Shown here piece after piece: positions 2,643 through 12,508 of a stretch of DNA of 22,176 nt (position 1 is its first letter; each line of letters begins with the position of its first letter). The position numbers and the translations under genes were made by a program. The notes below the pieces were generated by a model. That model was not told the origin of the DNA. It saw nothing but the letters and a program-made list of their open reading frames with translations, and did no database searches. Source of the stretch: a virus; the IMG/VR virus record IMGVR_UViG_3300037156_000309, positions 1 to 22,176 of that record. One strand, written 5' to 3'.

Positions 2643-3806
2643 TTGACCACGCTGATCAGCGCCGACAAGTTCCGGAAGGAATTGCGGGCGCGGCAGCCGC
2701 CCTCGGGCGGTGTTTACCGTGTCAGCACCGAGGGGCTGGTGCCGGTGGAAGGGGTGGAGCGGACGCTGCGCTTTTGCTTCTCCGACAACAGCGTCGACCG
2801 GATGGGCGATACGATCGACGCCGCCGGTTGGGACCTGATGGATTTCAATCGGAACCCGGTGGCGTTGTGGGCGCACGATAGCTCGGCGCCGCCGATCGGG
2901 GGCGCGCGGAACGTGGCCGTCGAAGGCCAGCGGCTGATGGGCGACATCGAATTCGCGCGCCCGGAGACCTACGCGTTCGCGGAAACGATCTACCGCCTGT
3001 TGCTGGACAAGTTCATCCGCGCGGTGAGCGTCGGTTTCATGCCGGTCAAATATCGCTTCGCCGAAAATGACGCCGACCGGGCGTTTGGAATCGACTTTCT
3101 GGAACAGAGCCTGCTGGAGATCAGCGTGTGCCCGGTTCCCGCCAATCCCAACGCGCTGGCCGAGGCTCGCCGGAAGGGGATCGACACGCGTCCGCTGATG
3201 GAGTGGGCGGAAAGAACGCTCGATGGTGGTGGCAAGGTGATCCTGCCGCGCGCCGAATTGGAACGATTACGGAAAGCTGCAAAGGAACCAGCGATGGCAC
3301 GAAATCCCCGCTCGCGTTCGAAAGGCGCGCGCGCCGATGGGGCGACTGAAGACGCTCCGGAGGCCGGCGCCGCTGCCATCGGAAAATGCGGACGCGATCC
3401 GGACGGCGAATGCGGCATGACCGATCCGGCGGAATGCTCGGTGCATGGCGGCTCCAAAGCCGAGCCAGAGGCGGATGATGCAAAGGCGCTGGCGGCACTG
3501 TTGCGGCGGCTGCTCCCACGCCGCAAGGACGACGGCGCGACCGGCGATGACGATCTGCCGCTGGCGCATGAAGACGCGATCCGACTTGCACACAAATCAC
3601 TGCGCACGTCGAAGGCGTTCCTCACCGAGGCGGTTACCCACCACAACAAGGCGCTGGACCTGCTGGGCGGTGTAGTTGATGCGCTGGACGACACCCCCCA
3701 AGCCGATCCGGCGAGCGTACCACCGTCCGACCCGGACCCCGATGCAGAGAAAGCGGCGCAACTGCGCCGGGCAGCCGCGTTGAAGGCCAAGCACAACGCG
3801 GCGTGA
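2643..3806 (+). CDS. HK97-family prohead maturation protease with long C-terminal extension
   Basis: This serine protease cleaves the scaffold and capsid protein during head maturation. Residues about 25-185 match the family: SVDRMGDTIDAAGWDL, the candidate catalytic His in VALWAHDSSAPP, and the candidate catalytic Ser in RAVSVGFMP, then LEISVCPVPANPNA. At 387 residues it is much longer than the core domain. The C-terminal half is charged and low in complexity and may act as a fused scaffold. It includes an odd Cys/His cluster (C249, C257, C265, H268). The TTG start has AGAGG only 2 nt away, and the gene begins 5 nt after the terminase stop. A portal gene would normally occupy that junction. 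The downstream neighbour on this strand should be the capsid gene, but an antisense cassette lies between. Confidence 0.93.
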   Translation: MTTLISADKFRKELRARQPPSGGVYRVSTEGLVPVEGVERTLRFCFSDNSVDRMGDTIDAAGWDLMDFNRNPVALWAHDSSAPPIGGARNVAVEGQRLMGDIEFARPETYAFAETIYRLLLDKFIRAVSVGFMPVKYRFAENDADRAFGIDFLEQSLLEISVCPVPANPNALAEARRKGIDTRPLMEWAERTLDGGGKVILPRAELERLRKAAKEPAMARNPRSRSKGARADGATEDAPEAGAAAIGKCGRDPDGECGMTDPAECSVHGGSKAEPEADDAKALAALLRRLLPRRKDDGATGDDDLPLAHEDAIRLAHKSLRTSKAFLTEAVTHHNKALDLLGGVVDALDDTPQADPASVPPSDPDPDAEKAAQLRRAAALKAKHNAA

Positions 3807-3889
3807 CGCTGAACGGCTACGCGATCAATGCGGCCGGTGTGGAGTTGCCGCAAGAGCCCGCTGCACGGCTGGAGGGTCCACCGCGATGA
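3803..3889 (+). CDS. Possible 28-residue phage ORF or gene remnant after the protease
   Basis: A GTG overlapping the protease stop (GTGA) opens a 28-codon frame starting VTLNGYAINAAGVELP and ending at TGA 3887-3889. The overlapping start is typical of coupled phage genes and the first half reads like phage protein sequence. It runs antisense into the end of the minus-strand HTH gene, so it may be a gene cut short when that cassette inserted. No family is recognised. Confidence 0.25.
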   Translation: MTLNGYAINAAGVELPQEPAARLEGPPR

Positions 3890-4163
3890 CTTTGAGATAG
3901 GCACGGGCTGTTTGATCCGGTTCCGCCCGTCCTTGCTCCCAATCACATAGCGTAACGATGGGGATTTGAAACCGCGCCGCGAATTCTTCCTGTGTCAGTC
4001 CAAGCGCCCGGCGCAGCGTTTTAGCGCGCGGCACAGGTCTCATGCGGGCCATGCTTTCTTCCGTCAGGGGTTGGGCATCCGGATCGGCGAGCGCGGCGGC
4101 GTGAACCTCGGCCTCTGTCATTGAAGCGAGGGGCCACAAGCCCGTCTGATCGCTATCGGTCAT
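3825..4163 (-). CDS. Small HTH DNA-binding protein, antitoxin-like
   Basis: This 112-residue protein has an acidic N-terminus followed by a helix-turn-helix of the HigA/YiaG-like type. RAKTLRRALGLTQEEFAARF is helix 1-2 and PIVTLCDWEQGRAEPD is the recognition helix with its conserved W-E-Q-G end. Such proteins usually act as autoregulating antitoxins, often beside a BrnT or HigB toxin. No such toxin is present here; its operon partner, 19 nt upstream on the same strand, is an XRE-DUF29 fusion. It ends 18 nt from the protease stop and is antisense to all surrounding structural genes, which marks it as cargo. The family role is established knowledge; the pairing with DUF29 as a functional unit is inference. 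Confidence 0.8.
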   Translation of the reverse strand: MTDSDQTGLWPLASMTEAEVHAAALADPDAQPLTEESMARMRPVPRAKTLRRALGLTQEEFAARFQIPIVTLCDWEQGRAEPDQTARAYLKVIAVDPPAVQRALAATPHRPH

Positions 4164-4182: not shown

Positions 4183-4962
4183 TCAGACAGGGTAAAAAGC
4201 CGGGTCGAGGATTTGATCCATCGACCACGGGCAGGTCTCTGGAAAATCCTCGATGCTGGTTTCTTCGAAGGCTTTCGCCTTTGCGTCCGACCACGCGTCC
4301 AGTAACCATTCGGGATCGGCGAGACTGGCTTTCAGGCTTGGGGTCTTCACGAGCCGCCGGTCGATCATCCGCCGCTGTTCGCGCAAAGTGCCCTGCCAGC
4401 TTTTACCCCGCCGCTCCGGCTGCGCCTGCCACTTCAGCAGGTGCGCCAGAAGAACGGCCATGCGATTGGCCAGTTCACGCTGTTCGCTTTTGCCCACGTC
4501 TTCGACCTCATCGGCGATATGCTCGATGTCGAGCTGTGAGAATTTACCGGCGCGAAGCAGCGCGGCTTGCTCGTTGGCCCAAGCGACGATGTCGGTTTCG
4601 TAGGCGGCCTTCATCACGACCTCCGTTGTGTCGGCATGATGCCCACAATCTGGTTCGTCGGGCAGCAGTTCGTCAACGCTCAATCCCAACTGCCGGGCCA
4701 GCCGTCGATAGATCGAAACTGAGCCCTCGCGTTGGCCGTCTTCAAGCTGAGCGAGATAGGGCTGGGATACACCGATCAATCCGGCCATGGCCGCTTGCGT
4801 AAATCCACGATGCTGGCGCCAAAACGCCAGCGGCGTGGGGGCTGCCAGATAGGCGTCCACATCGTCACCGGACAGCGTTTGAACCCTACCCGCCTCGATG
4901 GCCCGCATCGCGGCCTCGTGGTCGCGCGCGTCAATCAGGTCTTCATCTTCATCGGCGGTCAT
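4183..4962 (-). CDS. XRE-type HTH fused in frame to a DUF29 domain
   Basis: The 259-residue product starts at ATG 4962 (TTG 4971 and GTG 4968 are in-frame alternatives). Residues about 45-100 form an XRE/Cro-type helix-turn-helix (FWRQHRGFTQAAMAGLIGVS, then PYLAQLEDGQREGS and LGLSVDELLP). Residues about 117-259 are a complete DUF29 domain: YETDIVAWANEQAALLRAG, LDIEHIADEVEDVG, LLAHLLKWQAQPERRGKSW, ending CPWSMDQILDPAFYP. DUF29 is widespread and of unknown function, normally encoded alone starting just before the YETD block. Here an ATG at that exact point (4614) is preceded by a strong Shine-Dalgarno, so a free 143-residue DUF29 protein could be made as well. The gene is divergent from the capsid gene and leads a two-gene operon with the HTH protein downstream. 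Confidence 0.85.
   Translation of the reverse strand: MTADEDEDLIDARDHEAAMRAIEAGRVQTLSGDDVDAYLAAPTPLAFWRQHRGFTQAAMAGLIGVSQPYLAQLEDGQREGSVSIYRRLARQLGLSVDELLPDEPDCGHHADTTEVVMKAAYETDIVAWANEQAALLRAGKFSQLDIEHIADEVEDVGKSEQRELANRMAVLLAHLLKWQAQPERRGKSWQGTLREQRRMIDRRLVKTPSLKASLADPEWLLDAWSDAKAKAFEETSIEDFPETCPWSMDQILDPAFYPV
4612..4624 (-). promoter_or_regulatory. Internal ribosome binding site and start for stand-alone DUF29
   Basis: On the minus strand GGAGG (4624-4620) stands 5 nt before an in-frame ATG (4614-4612). This is a near-ideal start signal inside the XRE-DUF29 reading frame, at the position where ordinary DUF29 proteins begin. It suggests either two products from one gene or a recent fusion of two formerly separate genes. 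Confidence 0.65.
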
Positions 4963-5024
4963 TGTCACCAACCCCCATCCGCTGTGTGCGCCGATCTATT
5001 ATTTCAAAGGACGTCAAAAATACC

Positions 5025-6395
5025 ATGAGTACACTGCTGTCCCTTCGCCAAGCCCTCGGCAAGGCGGTGGATGAATTGCCGCCCCTCGCCGGCACCAAGG
5101 ACTTCGCCACCAAGGAACGCGAGATCGAGGATTTGGAACGCACGATCAGCGACCTTGAGCGTGCCGAAAAGCGCGCCGCCGGTCTGGCCCGCCCCGTGGG
5201 CGGCGGCGACGTCGTGCGTGACATCGCTGAAATCAACCCGTCGAAGCGCACCCTGTCACAGATCAGGGCGATGGACCCCCGCCCCGGCCGTCTGAAGGGC
5301 TTCGACGATTACCTCAGCCTCGCCCGAAAAGGTCTGGACTTCACCCCCACCGCCGACAGCCAGTACCGCTCATTCGGCGATCAGCTTCAGTCCATCTTCA
5401 AACACTACAGCAGCAAGGGCAGCGACACGGACCGGCGCCTGGTGCGGGCGCCAACCGGGGCCAGCGATGTCGATCCGACGGGCGGCGGCTTCCTGGTGCA
5501 GGTCGATTTCGCCGCGGCGATCTTCATGCTGGCGCACGACATGGGCGAGATCCTCAGCCGCACCAACAAACTGCCGATCAGCGCCAACGCCAACGGCATC
5601 AAGATACCGGGCGTGGACGAAACCAGCCGGGCGACTGGCAGCCGCTGGGGTGGTGTGGCGTCGAACTGGGTTGGCGAGGGCACGAACGTCACGCCGACAC
5701 GACCGAAATTCCGCATCGTCGAGTTCGACCTGAAGAAGCTCATGTCGCTGATGTACACGACTGATGAGCTATTGCAGGATTCGACGGCGCTAACCTCGCT
5801 CGCCAGCCAGGCGTTCTCGGAAGAAGTCATGTTCATGACCGAGGACGCGATCTTCGAGGGCACCGGTGCCGGCATGCCGCTGGGCGTGCTGAAAAGCCCA
5901 TGCCTGATTACCGTGCCAAAACAGACCGGTCAGGCGCCGGCCACATTGGTCAAGGAAAACATCGACAACATGTGGGCGCGCTGCTGGGCACGCTCGATGA
6001 AAAACGCGGTGTGGTTCATCAATCAAGACGTGTTGCCGCAGCTCATGGCGATGAACCAGTCGGTCGGCACGGGCGGGCAGTTGGTTTACATGCCGCCGGG
6101 CGGGCTGTCGGCAACGCCGTATTCGACCCTGTATGGCCGCGAGGTGGTTTGGACCGAATACAGCTCCACCGTCGGGACCACGGGCGACATCATGCTCGCG
6201 GATTTCAGCCAATACATGTTGGTGGATAAGAACGGTGTGCAGGCGGCGACCAGCATGCACGCGGCGTTTCTGACCGACGAAATGGTGTTCCGCATCACCT
6301 ATCGCGTTGACGGCAAGCCGATGTGGTCGCAGCCGCTGACGCCATTCAAAGGCCAGAACACCAAAAGCCCGTTCATCGCGTTGGCCTCGCGCTAG
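5025..6395 (+). CDS. Major capsid protein, HK97 fold
   Basis: This 456-residue protein forms the icosahedral head lattice. Residues 1-75 are charged and predicted helical with heptad-like spacing (KEREIEDLERTISDLERAEK), matching the scaffold-like delta region that the prohead protease removes. The mature part begins around the GGGFLVQVDFAA block and shows the usual family sequence: SRWGGVASNWVGEGTNVTPT, FDLKKLMSLMYTTDELLQDS, FEGTGAGMPLGVL, and a C-terminal VFRITYRVDGKP segment. I chose ATG 5025 because the upstream in-frame codons look non-coding and AAAGGA lies upstream, though 13 nt is long spacing. An antisense cassette separates it from its protease. Confidence 0.95.
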   Translation: MSTLLSLRQALGKAVDELPPLAGTKDFATKEREIEDLERTISDLERAEKRAAGLARPVGGGDVVRDIAEINPSKRTLSQIRAMDPRPGRLKGFDDYLSLARKGLDFTPTADSQYRSFGDQLQSIFKHYSSKGSDTDRRLVRAPTGASDVDPTGGGFLVQVDFAAAIFMLAHDMGEILSRTNKLPISANANGIKIPGVDETSRATGSRWGGVASNWVGEGTNVTPTRPKFRIVEFDLKKLMSLMYTTDELLQDSTALTSLASQAFSEEVMFMTEDAIFEGTGAGMPLGVLKSPCLITVPKQTGQAPATLVKENIDNMWARCWARSMKNAVWFINQDVLPQLMAMNQSVGTGGQLVYMPPGGLSATPYSTLYGREVVWTEYSSTVGTTGDIMLADFSQYMLVDKNGVQAATSMHAAFLTDEMVFRITYRVDGKPMWSQPLTPFKGQNTKSPFIALASR

Positions 6396-8045: not shown

Positions 8046-8342
8046 TTACCGGAGATTCTCCGCCGCTTTCTTCAGGATCGCGTCTATCCTGCTCTGCCAG
8101 CCTGGCCCGGTTGCGCGGAAAGCATCCAGAGTGGCGCGATCCAGCCGAATCGCTGTGAGCTCTTTCGTCGGCGCCTTTTGCTTGCCGCGGCCCCGTTTGA
8201 TGGCGGCCGCCATTTCGGGGTAGGCCTCGGCAAAGGGGCGCATCGAAGCGATTTCGGCTTCGGTGAGCGGCGGGCTATCAACGGCATCCCAGTCCTCTTT
8301 GGTGTATCCATGCCCAGGCTCGAATGCTTTTAATTTAGGCAT
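8046..8342 (-). CDS. brnA: BrnA-family antitoxin without its BrnT toxin
   Basis: BrnA proteins are ribbon-helix-helix antitoxins that neutralise the BrnT ribonuclease and repress their own operon. The 98-residue product has the family signature: GYTKEDWDAVDSPPLTEAEI at residues 12-31, a linker with a basic RGRGKQK stretch, and the C-terminal block KELTAIRLDRATLDAFRATG followed by PGWQSRIDAILKKA. A good Shine-Dalgarno (GGGAGGAAA) precedes ATG 8342 on the minus strand. BrnT is normally encoded immediately upstream; here that position holds an HTH antitoxin and a RelE toxin instead, and no BrnT-like frame is visible in the window. It is therefore an orphan or has been recruited into this cassette. 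Confidence 0.85.
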   Translation of the reverse strand: MPKLKAFEPGHGYTKEDWDAVDSPPLTEAEIASMRPFAEAYPEMAAAIKRGRGKQKAPTKELTAIRLDRATLDAFRATGPGWQSRIDAILKKAAENLR

Positions 8343-8360
8343 CGAGGGCTTTCCTCCCGA

Positions 8361-8747
8361 TCAAGCGAGGTCATCCAGCGGAACCCCCAAGGCACCCGCC
8401 AGGGCGGTATGTGCCGCGAGACTTCCGGGCTTCTTTCCACTTTCTATTTCGTTGAGATAGCCCGCTTGAATCCCGGCAGCCTGAGCAAGCGCGCGTTGCG
8501 TCAGCCCACGCTTTTCGCGCCAGATACGAACCGGACTTTCGCCTGCCAGCATGCGCTTGGCCTCGTCGCCCGTGAGGTAGTTGGCCTTCGCCACCTCATA
8601 GCCCCCGAGGCTTTCTTCGTGGCGGCGGCGCGCGCGGACCGCGGCAATGTCTTCCGCATCCTCCGCTGCCAGGATCAGGGTTTCAAGATCGGTTCGGCTG
8701 ATCGTCACGGTGTCATCTGTCTCGGCCAGCAGTTTAATCGCGTTCAT
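8361..8747 (-). CDS. XRE-type HTH antitoxin paired with RelE toxin
   Basis: The 128-residue protein has an N-terminal segment resembling antitoxin dimer or toxin-binding regions (TISRTDLETLILAAEDAEDI), then the block EAKRMLAGESPVRIWREKRG and an XRE-type helix-turn-helix (GLTQRALAQAAGIQAGYLNE, IESGKKPGS). Proteins of this arrangement bind and inhibit RelE/HigB-type toxins and repress the shared promoter. Its ATG overlaps the toxin stop by 4 nt, so the pair is translationally coupled with the toxin first, as in higBA-type modules. The 54-bp palindrome upstream of the toxin gene is the likely operator. BrnA follows 18 nt downstream in the same operon. Confidence 0.85.
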   Translation of the reverse strand: MNAIKLLAETDDTVTISRTDLETLILAAEDAEDIAAVRARRRHEESLGGYEVAKANYLTGDEAKRMLAGESPVRIWREKRGLTQRALAQAAGIQAGYLNEIESGKKPGSLAAHTALAGALGVPLDDLA

Positions 8748-8995
8748 CGGTAGATGTCCCTTCTGTTTCCGATGCGTGTGACAACGACATCATTGCCTTC
8801 GATCGTGTAAACGGCGCGCCAGTCGCCTTTGCGGAGCCGCCATGTTCCCGGTTGGCCGACCATCTCGGTGACGAAAGAAAAACGGGTGTTCAGGTCGGCG
8901 GCAACCTGTTCGAGCGCCTCAAGAATACGGCTGGCATCGGCCTTCGGCATGGCCTTCAGTTGCTTCATCGCGGCCGGGATGAGGATCAATGGCAT
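8744..8995 (-). CDS. RelE/ParE-superfamily toxin
   Basis: The 83-residue product has the compact RelE-fold pattern: an N-terminal helical hairpin (AAMKQLKAMPKADASRILEA), a central strand pair (TWRLRKGDWRAVYTIEGNDV), and a closing strand VVTRIGNRRDIYR. The arginines of WRLRKGDWR and the terminal GNRRDIYR match the catalytic and RNA-contacting positions typical of ribosome-dependent mRNA interferases of this family. Length is normal, so the toxin appears intact. It overlaps the HTH antitoxin by 4 nt. ATG 8995 has only a weak purine-rich stretch upstream. It is antisense to the phage operon. Confidence 0.88.
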   Translation of the reverse strand: MPLILIPAAMKQLKAMPKADASRILEALEQVAADLNTRFSFVTEMVGQPGTWRLRKGDWRAVYTIEGNDVVVTRIGNRRDIYR

Positions 8996-10921: not shown

Positions 10922-12508
10922 ATGGACCCCATTTTCAACACACCACGCGTGTTCCGCGAGCGAGAGGTTCCAGAAGGCGCCGAGATCGCCGGATACGCCG
11001 CGCTGGTCCATGCCTACGGCGTAGATGCCCCGCTTCGCTCGGCAGCCTGCATTCGATCGAAGTTCTCCGCTGTGGCACGCCGGGAGACCTCCGATTGGGC
11101 AATCTTCGAGAAGCGCTACAGGCCAGAACCGACGATCGCCGGACACCTTACATTCGCGTTACGGCACGAACCGTTGGACCTTTTGGTCCTGAAAAGGTGC
11201 TTTGACAAGATTGAGATCGCTGACTTCACGCGGATCGTGGCAGCCGAACCGAGCGGCATTTGGACCCGGCGCGCGTGGTTCCTGTTCGAGTGGCTGACTG
11301 GCAGACATCTGGAAGTCCCCGATCTGAAGCGCGGCAACTACATCGAAGCCCTCGAACCGACCAATTACTACACCGTAAAATCGGTGAACTCGCCGCGGCA
11401 TCGGGTCCGGAACAACCTTCCGGGCGTTCCGGATTTCTGTCCAATCATCCGCCGCACGGCTTCCCTCGACACCTTCATTGGCCGCAACCTGGACGATGCG
11501 GCTCGCCAGATTACCGGTCGGGTGGACCGGCGGGTGCTGTCACGGGCCGCCAGTTTTCTTCTGCTGGCCGATAGCCAGGCCAGTTTTCAGATCGAAGGCG
11601 ACCGGGCACCCAGGAACCGGATTGAGCGGTGGGGGCGGGCTGTCATGCAAGCCGGGCACCAGACGCTGTCCGTCGCTGAATTGGAACGCCTTCAATCGGT
11701 CATTATCGAGGGTGCCCGTCTTATCGAACCGGGCATTCGAACCGATGCGGTGTTTCTCGGCGACAGAGCGCCGGACGGCACGCCCATCCCCGAATTCATA
11801 GGCGCGCGTCCAACGGACTTGGCACGACTGATGTCGGGACTTCTCGCGGCGAACATCAGGATGTCAGAGGGGCAGATGCCGCCAGTACTCCAGGCCGCGG
11901 CGATCTCCTTCGGCTTCGTGATGGCGCATCCCTTCGAGGACGGAAACGGACGCCTACACAGGTTCCTGATCCATCATGTTCTTGCTGAGCGGGGCTTCTC
12001 TCCGCCAGACGTTCTGTTTCCAGTGTCAACGGCGATTTTGGCGGTCATTGATGAATACGCCCAGGTCCTCAAGGCGCACTCGGGTCCGTTAATGGACCAC
12101 ATCGAATGGACCACCTCCTCGAGGTTGAATGTCGCGGTGCTTAACGACACGCGCGACCTCTATGCGCTGTTCGACGCCACGAAGTTCACCGAATTTCTTT
12201 ACACCTGCGTCGCCCGCACCATCGACGAAGATCTGCCGATGGAAATCGCTCACTTGCGGGCACACGACCAGGCCAAATCGGAGATTCTCAGCCGGTTCGA
12301 AATGCCGGACTCAAAGGTGTCTCTCCTGATCACGTTCTTGAGGCAGAACGGCGGGATCTTATCCAAGAGACGGCGCCAGGACGAGTTCGCGGCCCTTACC
12401 GATGACGAGGTGACCCTTATCGAAGGCCTTGTCCAGGAAGCTTTCGACACGGGAGAGACAACGGCCAAGGACGAACACGACGACATAAACAAAGCGCGGA
12501 TCGGATAG
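10922..12508 (+). CDS. Fic-domain protein, probable AMP-transferase of class II
   Basis: Fic proteins transfer AMP (sometimes other nucleotide groups) to target proteins. The catalytic loop HPFEDGNGRLHR is complete, with the catalytic His at residue 336. The inhibitory helix motif S/T-x3-E-G/N is present upstream as SFQIEG (S221, E225, G226), so the enzyme is probably autoinhibited in cis and needs no separate antitoxin. Residues 1-180 are a non-Fic N-terminal region. The C-terminal end (SLLITFLRQNGGILSKRRRQ onward) resembles a winged-helix segment. At 528 residues it is long for a Fic protein but typical of bacterial multi-domain ones. It sits alone between neck and tail genes with AT-rich flanks and its own promoter, so it is cargo rather than a structural gene. 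Targets are unknown. Confidence 0.93.
   Translation: MDPIFNTPRVFREREVPEGAEIAGYAALVHAYGVDAPLRSAACIRSKFSAVARRETSDWAIFEKRYRPEPTIAGHLTFALRHEPLDLLVLKRCFDKIEIADFTRIVAAEPSGIWTRRAWFLFEWLTGRHLEVPDLKRGNYIEALEPTNYYTVKSVNSPRHRVRNNLPGVPDFCPIIRRTASLDTFIGRNLDDAARQITGRVDRRVLSRAASFLLLADSQASFQIEGDRAPRNRIERWGRAVMQAGHQTLSVAELERLQSVIIEGARLIEPGIRTDAVFLGDRAPDGTPIPEFIGARPTDLARLMSGLLAANIRMSEGQMPPVLQAAAISFGFVMAHPFEDGNGRLHRFLIHHVLAERGFSPPDVLFPVSTAILAVIDEYAQVLKAHSGPLMDHIEWTTSSRLNVAVLNDTRDLYALFDATKFTEFLYTCVARTIDEDLPMEIAHLRAHDQAKSEILSRFEMPDSKVSLLITFLRQNGGILSKRRRQDEFAALTDDEVTLIEGLVQEAFDTGETTAKDEHDDINKARIG

What the first reader, a model, noticed from the sequence alone, without database searches (positions are those of the whole stretch)
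4183..4962. XRE-HTH fused to DUF29 with a perfect internal start
DUF29 proteins normally stand alone. Here the domain is joined in frame to an XRE repressor-like domain, yet keeps GGAGG-N5-ATG at its ordinary starting point. One gene could make both a DNA-binding DUF29 fusion and free DUF29, which is a plausible built-in regulation scheme for a toxin-antitoxin-like unit. The function of DUF29 is unknown, so this fusion is a clue to it.
Basis: partly seen in the sequence, partly recalled or inferred. Interest (0 to 1): 0.75.

Follow-up and report, generated by a model that had tools for sequence, protein, structure and literature searches.

The report
Phage gene fusing antitoxin to DUF29
A phage gene really does join the DNA-binding antitoxin of a toxin-antitoxin pair to the uncharacterised domain DUF29 while keeping DUF29's own start signal; it came from shuffled toxin-antitoxin cassettes, and the site where it sits suggests that DUF29 itself behaves like a stand-alone toxin.

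Summary
The fusion is real and lies on the minus strand (window 4183-4962; 259 codons, no stop or frame change). The internal start GGAGG-N5-ATG (4614) is the strongest ribosome-site candidate of any in-frame internal ATG tested in the window, and it is the conserved native start of DUF29 in unfused relatives. The gene lies in a hypervariable slot, antisense between prohead protease and capsid. Sister phages (capsid 78-85% identical) hold interchangeable toxin-antitoxin cassettes there: RelE/ParE+XRE1, BrnT+XRE2, Uma2+XRE2, HigBA, DUF29+XRE1 and DUF29+XRE2. The window is a recombinant of a RelE-XRE1 cassette, with RelE and about 17 antitoxin residues lost, and a DUF29-XRE2 cassette. Most of the linker is DUF29's translated 5' leader. 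Remnants of the same junction survive in two bacterial chromosomes, so it is not an assembly artefact; the complete fusion was found only here. DUF29 is usually solitary, so not an obligate toxin-antitoxin partner. It does occupy the toxin position beside known antitoxins and is co-distributed with Uma2, previously predicted to be a 'solo toxin'. Best reading: a TA-cassette hybrid that mainly delivers free DUF29.

The parts
4183..4962 (-). XRE1::DUF29 fusion gene (259 aa; possible TTG start at 4971)
4666..4821 (-). HTH (XRE) domain, residues 48-99; antitoxin of RelE-XRE1 modules, 85% identical to the antitoxin in L131
   Evidence: Pfam HTH_3/HTH_31; L131
4615..4656 (-). Linker EPDCGHHADTTEVV; mostly DUF29's 5' leader read in frame
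   Evidence: alignment to leaders of L003, L222, L242
4620..4624 (-). GGAGG Shine-Dalgarno sequence of the internal start
   Evidence: pairing energy and background
4183..4614 (-). DUF29 domain, with its native ATG at 4614; predicted 143-aa free product
   Evidence: Pfam DUF29 3.7e-46; conserved start in unfused relatives; AF2 pLDDT 92.7
3825..4163 (-). XRE2 gene, 19 nt after DUF29; partner of BrnT in L133/L134, of Uma2 in L136, of DUF29 in L003
3807..5024 (.). Hypervariable cassette slot between prohead protease and capsid; mostly empty in sister phages
2643..3806 (+). Prohead protease (left border of slot)
   Evidence: Pfam Peptidase_S78
5025..6395 (+). Major capsid protein (right border of slot)
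   Evidence: Pfam Phage_capsid 6.4e-41

Best explanation
The gene is a recombinant of two toxin-antitoxin-like cassettes that trade places in a hypervariable slot of this phage family. A RelE-XRE1 cassette lost RelE and the start of its antitoxin, and what remained was joined in frame to the leader of a DUF29-XRE2 cassette (shown by alignment to both parental types). Because the join kept DUF29's own Shine-Dalgarno and ATG, the mRNA probably yields free 143-aa DUF29 plus some 259-aa antitoxin-DUF29 fusion (inferred, about 75%). DUF29 most likely acts as a solo-toxin-like effector, the way Uma2 has been proposed to act, since it takes the toxin position beside antitoxins that elsewhere serve RelE and BrnT (inferred, about 45%). 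The XRE1 part is still constrained as a protein, but its usual operator is missing, so any restraint on DUF29 would come from protein contact or from XRE2 rather than from native XRE1 autorepression (inferred).
For: Parents in the same slot: L131 RelE/ParE+XRE1, L003 DUF29+XRE2, L002 DUF29+XRE1; also BrnT+XRE2 (L133, L134), Uma2+XRE2 (L136), Uma2+XRE2+Uma2 (L137, L138) and HigBA (L205). Junction: XRE1 homology to L131 runs to window ~4650, DUF29-leader homology to L003 begins ~4636 and continues through XRE2. The same XRE1-tail/DUF29 junction survives in L242 (88% over 509 nt, no indel, directly behind hipA-hipB) and L222/L243 (86%, 2-nt deletion). Start strength. Purifying selection: dN/dS 0.09-0.22 for XRE1 and 0.05-0.11 for DUF29. 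DUF29 and Uma2 co-occur: 45 of 45 DUF29-positive genomes of one bacterial family are Uma2-positive against 66 of 116 overall; copy-number Spearman 0.85 (uncorrected for phylogeny). DUF29 is frequent on small plasmids and in tandem paralogous pairs, as described for Uma2 (PMC2701414).
Against: No toxicity or expression data. DUF29 mostly lacks an antitoxin neighbour: XRE-type neighbours in only a handful of about 109 loci and 3 of 54 later ones. No DUF29 model among PADLOC defence families. The fold gives no enzymatic clue: only 3fcn, of unknown function, matches well. DUF29 pairs with both XRE1 and XRE2, which may mean neither is a cognate antitoxin.
Confidence: 0.5

Rival explanations
1. Neutral relic: DUF29 is a harmless accessory gene of mobile DNA that happens to share the slot; XRE1 is an orphan antitoxin left after RelE was lost; the fusion has no special function, and DUF29 is made from its own start as elsewhere.
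For: DUF29 is usually solitary; in L222 and L242 the same DUF29 persists after XRE1 was reduced to a tail; operator absent.
Against: In all three slot cassettes that hold DUF29 an XRE antitoxin gene adjoins it; XRE1 of the window has kept a low dN/dS, like intact modules; same-strand XRE neighbours cluster within 300 nt of DUF29 outside this phage group as well.
Confidence: 0.3
2. One reading: the full-length fusion is a DNA-binding repressor/antitoxin and the internal product is the toxin or effector, balanced in one gene with autoregulation.
For: In-frame fusion, strong internal start and a decent outer start (ATG 4962, -9.1 kcal/mol); XRE1 is a TA antitoxin in relatives; precedent for intragenic TA products in Rpn proteins (PMC10327210).
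Against: Likely operator missing from the window; antitoxin N-terminus truncated; only one complete instance found; free DUF29 survives elsewhere without XRE1.
Confidence: 0.15
3. Single-chain fused TA in which the XRE part holds DUF29 inactive in cis until a phage or stress signal releases it, as in CapRel-type fused systems.
For: Antitoxin and putative effector in one chain, carried by a phage among TA cassettes.
Against: The strong internal start would make unrestrained DUF29; the AF2 model places no reliable contact between the two parts (pTM 0.54, linker pLDDT about 50).
Confidence: 0.04
4. Assembly chimera or sequencing artefact.
For: Metagenome-derived viral contig; complete fusion seen once.
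Against: The same junction, without indel, lies in an unrelated bacterial chromosome (L242); both parts lack stops and show purifying selection.
Confidence: 0.01

Closest known systems
RelE/ParE-XRE type II toxin-antitoxin modules
   Same: XRE1 is the same antitoxin family (85% identical to the L131 antitoxin that follows a ParE-family toxin)
   Different: No RelE; antitoxin N-terminus (~17 aa) and candidate operator lost; antitoxin fused upstream of DUF29
Uma2/DUF820 (PF05685), predicted 'solo toxin' endonuclease (PMC2701414)
   Same: Same slot beside XRE2, usually solitary, tandem paralogues, strongly co-distributed with DUF29
   Different: Different fold: DUF29 is all-alpha and no catalytic motif was identified here
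Rpn long/short intragenic toxin-antitoxin genes (PMC10327210)
   Same: One gene with a strong internal start giving a C-terminal product
   Different: In Rpn the short form is the antitoxin; here the short form would be the putative effector, and the start is inherited from a once separate gene
Antitoxin partner swapping in type II TA networks (PMC10440598)
   Same: Modular exchange of toxin and antitoxin partners
   Different: Seen here inside one phage slot, ending in an antitoxin-effector fusion with a domain of unknown function
DUF29 protein 3fcn (Rhodospirillum rubrum, solved structure)
   Same: Same family (profile E 2.3e-11; Foldseek prob 1.0)
   Different: Stand-alone protein of unknown function

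Membership tests
DUF29 (PF01724) | Score above the Pfam gathering threshold over the full domain | tested here: met
   157.2 bits against 22.5; profile 2-138 of 138
XRE antitoxin of RelE-XRE1 modules | Homology to an antitoxin that follows a RelE/ParE toxin | tested here: met
   L131, L244, L245, L246 and L226 carry the RelE-like gene directly upstream of the XRE1 homologue; ParE_toxin by Pfam in L131 and L244
XRE antitoxin of RelE-XRE1 modules | Complete antitoxin with its N-terminal segment | tested here: not met
   The first ~17 residues are missing in the window and in L002
Type II toxin-antitoxin module | Recognised toxin gene beside the antitoxin | tested here: not met
   No known toxin between 3807 and 5024; only DUF29, of unknown function
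Type II toxin-antitoxin module | Autoregulatory operator upstream | tested here: not met
   TATAGC-N5-GCTATA of RelE-XRE1 promoters absent; the operator assignment itself is inferred
Type II toxin-antitoxin module | Toxicity of one product and neutralisation by the other | not testable with these tools
   Needs expression assays
Intragenic (gene-within-gene) two-product gene | Strong internal start in frame | tested here: met
Intragenic (gene-within-gene) two-product gene | Two products observed | not testable with these tools
   Needs immunoblot or ribosome profiling
Uma2-like solo toxin (works like, not member) | PD-(D/E)XK-type Uma2 domain | tested here: not met
   No Uma2 match; DUF29 model is all-alpha

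The most novel reading that the evidence does not exclude
DUF29 is a previously unrecognised solo-toxin family that antitoxins of RelE and BrnT systems can restrain, and this phage gene is a single-gene version that emits both the effector and an antitoxin-tethered form of it.
Probability: 0.2. Interest if true: 0.8.

Novelty: new variant of a known kind. Interest (0 to 1): 0.55.

Why it matters
DUF29 is an abundant family of bacteria, plasmids and phages, and no paper in the held library names it. Finding it in the toxin position of a phage slot otherwise filled by RelE, BrnT, Uma2 and HigBA cassettes turns 'function unknown' into a simple prediction: expressed alone it should impair growth or phage production, and XRE1 or XRE2 may relieve that. 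The same slot is a natural record of how toxin-antitoxin partners are exchanged.

Tried and rejected
Terminator and sigma-70 promoter scans of the slot gave nothing above chance. PADLOC and NCBIfam gave only generic HTH matches for the fusion. Structure comparison: after 3fcn only a weak similarity to the translin-like nuclease C3PO (prob about 0.5, E about 1), and a lone profile hit to one archaeal ribosomal protein L29 (E 7e-4), both judged uninformative. Mixing XRE rows into the structure alignment misaligned them and was dropped. The idea that DUF29 is an obligate toxin-antitoxin partner was rejected by the neighbour tally. Long open frames upstream of DUF29 in L042, L078, L079 and L126 were set aside by inspection only: they look like high-GC read-through without a recognisable domain, and no domain search was run on them. 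Phage collection: only an XRE-part match.

Full report
Observation. The feature is on the minus strand. From ATG 4962 (or TTG 4971) to the stop at 4183 the frame is open for 259 (262) codons. Pfam finds HTH_3/HTH_31 at residues 48-99 and DUF29 at 121-257 with E 3.7e-46. The internal start is GGAGG-TCGTG-ATG with ATG at 4614. Its pairing energy with the anti-Shine-Dalgarno (-10.2 kcal/mol) beats all 91 in-frame internal ATGs of 12 other ORFs in the window and is reached by 0.5% of all 588 ATGs; the outer start ATG 4962 is also usable (-9.1).

Where it lies. The window is a whole IMG/VR virus record of 22,176 bases. The gene lies antisense between the prohead protease (2643-3806) and the capsid gene (5025-6395) and is followed by a second XRE gene, XRE2 (3825-4163).

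The slot. Relatives with 78-85% identical capsids differ completely in this place. L131 has a ParE/RelE-family toxin and an XRE1 antitoxin, and no DUF29. L133 and L134 have BrnT and XRE2; L136 has Uma2 and XRE2; L137/L138 have Uma2, XRE2 and a second Uma2. L002 has free DUF29 followed after one base by XRE1; L003 has free DUF29 followed by XRE2. A scan anchored on the capsid shows the slot empty (gap under 280 nt) in most close relatives, Uma2 alone in L163, L165, L166 and L201, and a sense-strand HigBA pair in L205. DUF29 therefore occupies the position that known toxins occupy beside the same two antitoxins.

Origin of the fusion. Window XRE1 is homologous to the L131 antitoxin down to about window 4650, and homology to the DUF29 leader of L003 begins at about 4636 and runs on through XRE2. 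RelE and the first ~17 antitoxin residues are gone. The linker is mostly DUF29's translated leader, which is why its Shine-Dalgarno sequence and ATG are intact. The junction is older than this record: L242, in a bacterial chromosome, holds the last ~17 codons of XRE1, the linker and DUF29 without an indel (88% over 509 nt) directly behind hipA-hipB; L222/L243 holds a shorter XRE1 tail with a 2-nt deletion (86%), and its DUF29 is intact and has no XRE gene. For L222 the 60-nt leader match scores 38 against at most 18 in 500 shuffles; the part beyond the last 35 nt alone is borderline (15 against a maximum of 15). This makes an assembly chimera very unlikely. No other complete fusion was seen in about 130 DUF29 frames, in 250 genomes searched by protein, or in two overlapping draws of 397 and 398 genomes searched by DNA.

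Function of the parts. XRE1 of the window has dN/dS of 0.09-0.22 against five relatives, similar to intact modules compared among themselves (0.09-0.15), and DUF29 has 0.05-0.11; part of that divergence precedes the fusion. RelE-XRE1 modules (L131, L244, L245, L246) share a palindrome TATAGC-N5-GCTATA just upstream of RelE (10-12 of 12 positions), a likely XRE1 operator; upstream of the fusion the best match is 6 of 12 (shuffles mean 6.9), and the window has only chance-level matches. Native autoregulation is therefore not supported.

Is DUF29 a toxin? For: toxin position in the slot; same-strand XRE neighbours within 300 nt in five loci outside the slot (L025, L044, L045, L067, and weakly L083), with very few XRE matches elsewhere in about 5 kb on either side; frequent presence on small plasmids; tandem paralogues; and co-distribution with Uma2, where all 45 DUF29-positive of 116 genomes of one family are among the 66 Uma2-positive ones (hypergeometric p 3e-16, Spearman 0.85, not corrected for phylogeny). 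Makarova et al. 2009 called Uma2 a likely solo toxin, abundant, rarely beside antitoxins and in cassettes of paralogues (PMC2701414). Against: most DUF29 genes have no XRE or other recognised antitoxin next to them, there is no experimental work, and the confident all-alpha model (pLDDT 92.7) matches only 3fcn, of unknown function.

Verdict. The fusion is best read as a product of cassette shuffling; the more valuable lead is DUF29's place in the toxin slot.

Noticed in passing
window 8046-8995, minus strand: A second antisense island among head genes: an apparently intact ParE/RelE-family toxin (8744-8995) with XRE antitoxin (8361-8747), followed by a BrnA antitoxin (8046-8342; Pfam 2.4e-21) without a BrnT toxin.
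   Followed up: partly
window 10922-12508, plus strand: A 528-aa Fic/DOC-family gene inserted among the structural genes (Pfam Fic 2.8e-10), another candidate cargo gene.
   Followed up: no
L226 1249-2929: Bacterial locus with a RelE-XRE1 module facing a BrnT-XRE2 module, the two antitoxin types that meet again in the window.
   Followed up: partly
L242 56-2016: hipA-hipB followed directly by DUF29 carrying the XRE1 tail; hipB ends on a TGA created within the XRE1-derived sequence.
   Followed up: yes
G003 and relatives: DUF29 reaches 15-25 matches per genome in several genomes of this family; in G003 and G004 some are fragments, a pattern of rapid gain and decay.
   Followed up: partly
L012 3992-4845: Two DUF29 genes overlapping by four bases on an E. 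coli plasmid; a simple system for testing the function of the family.
   Followed up: no
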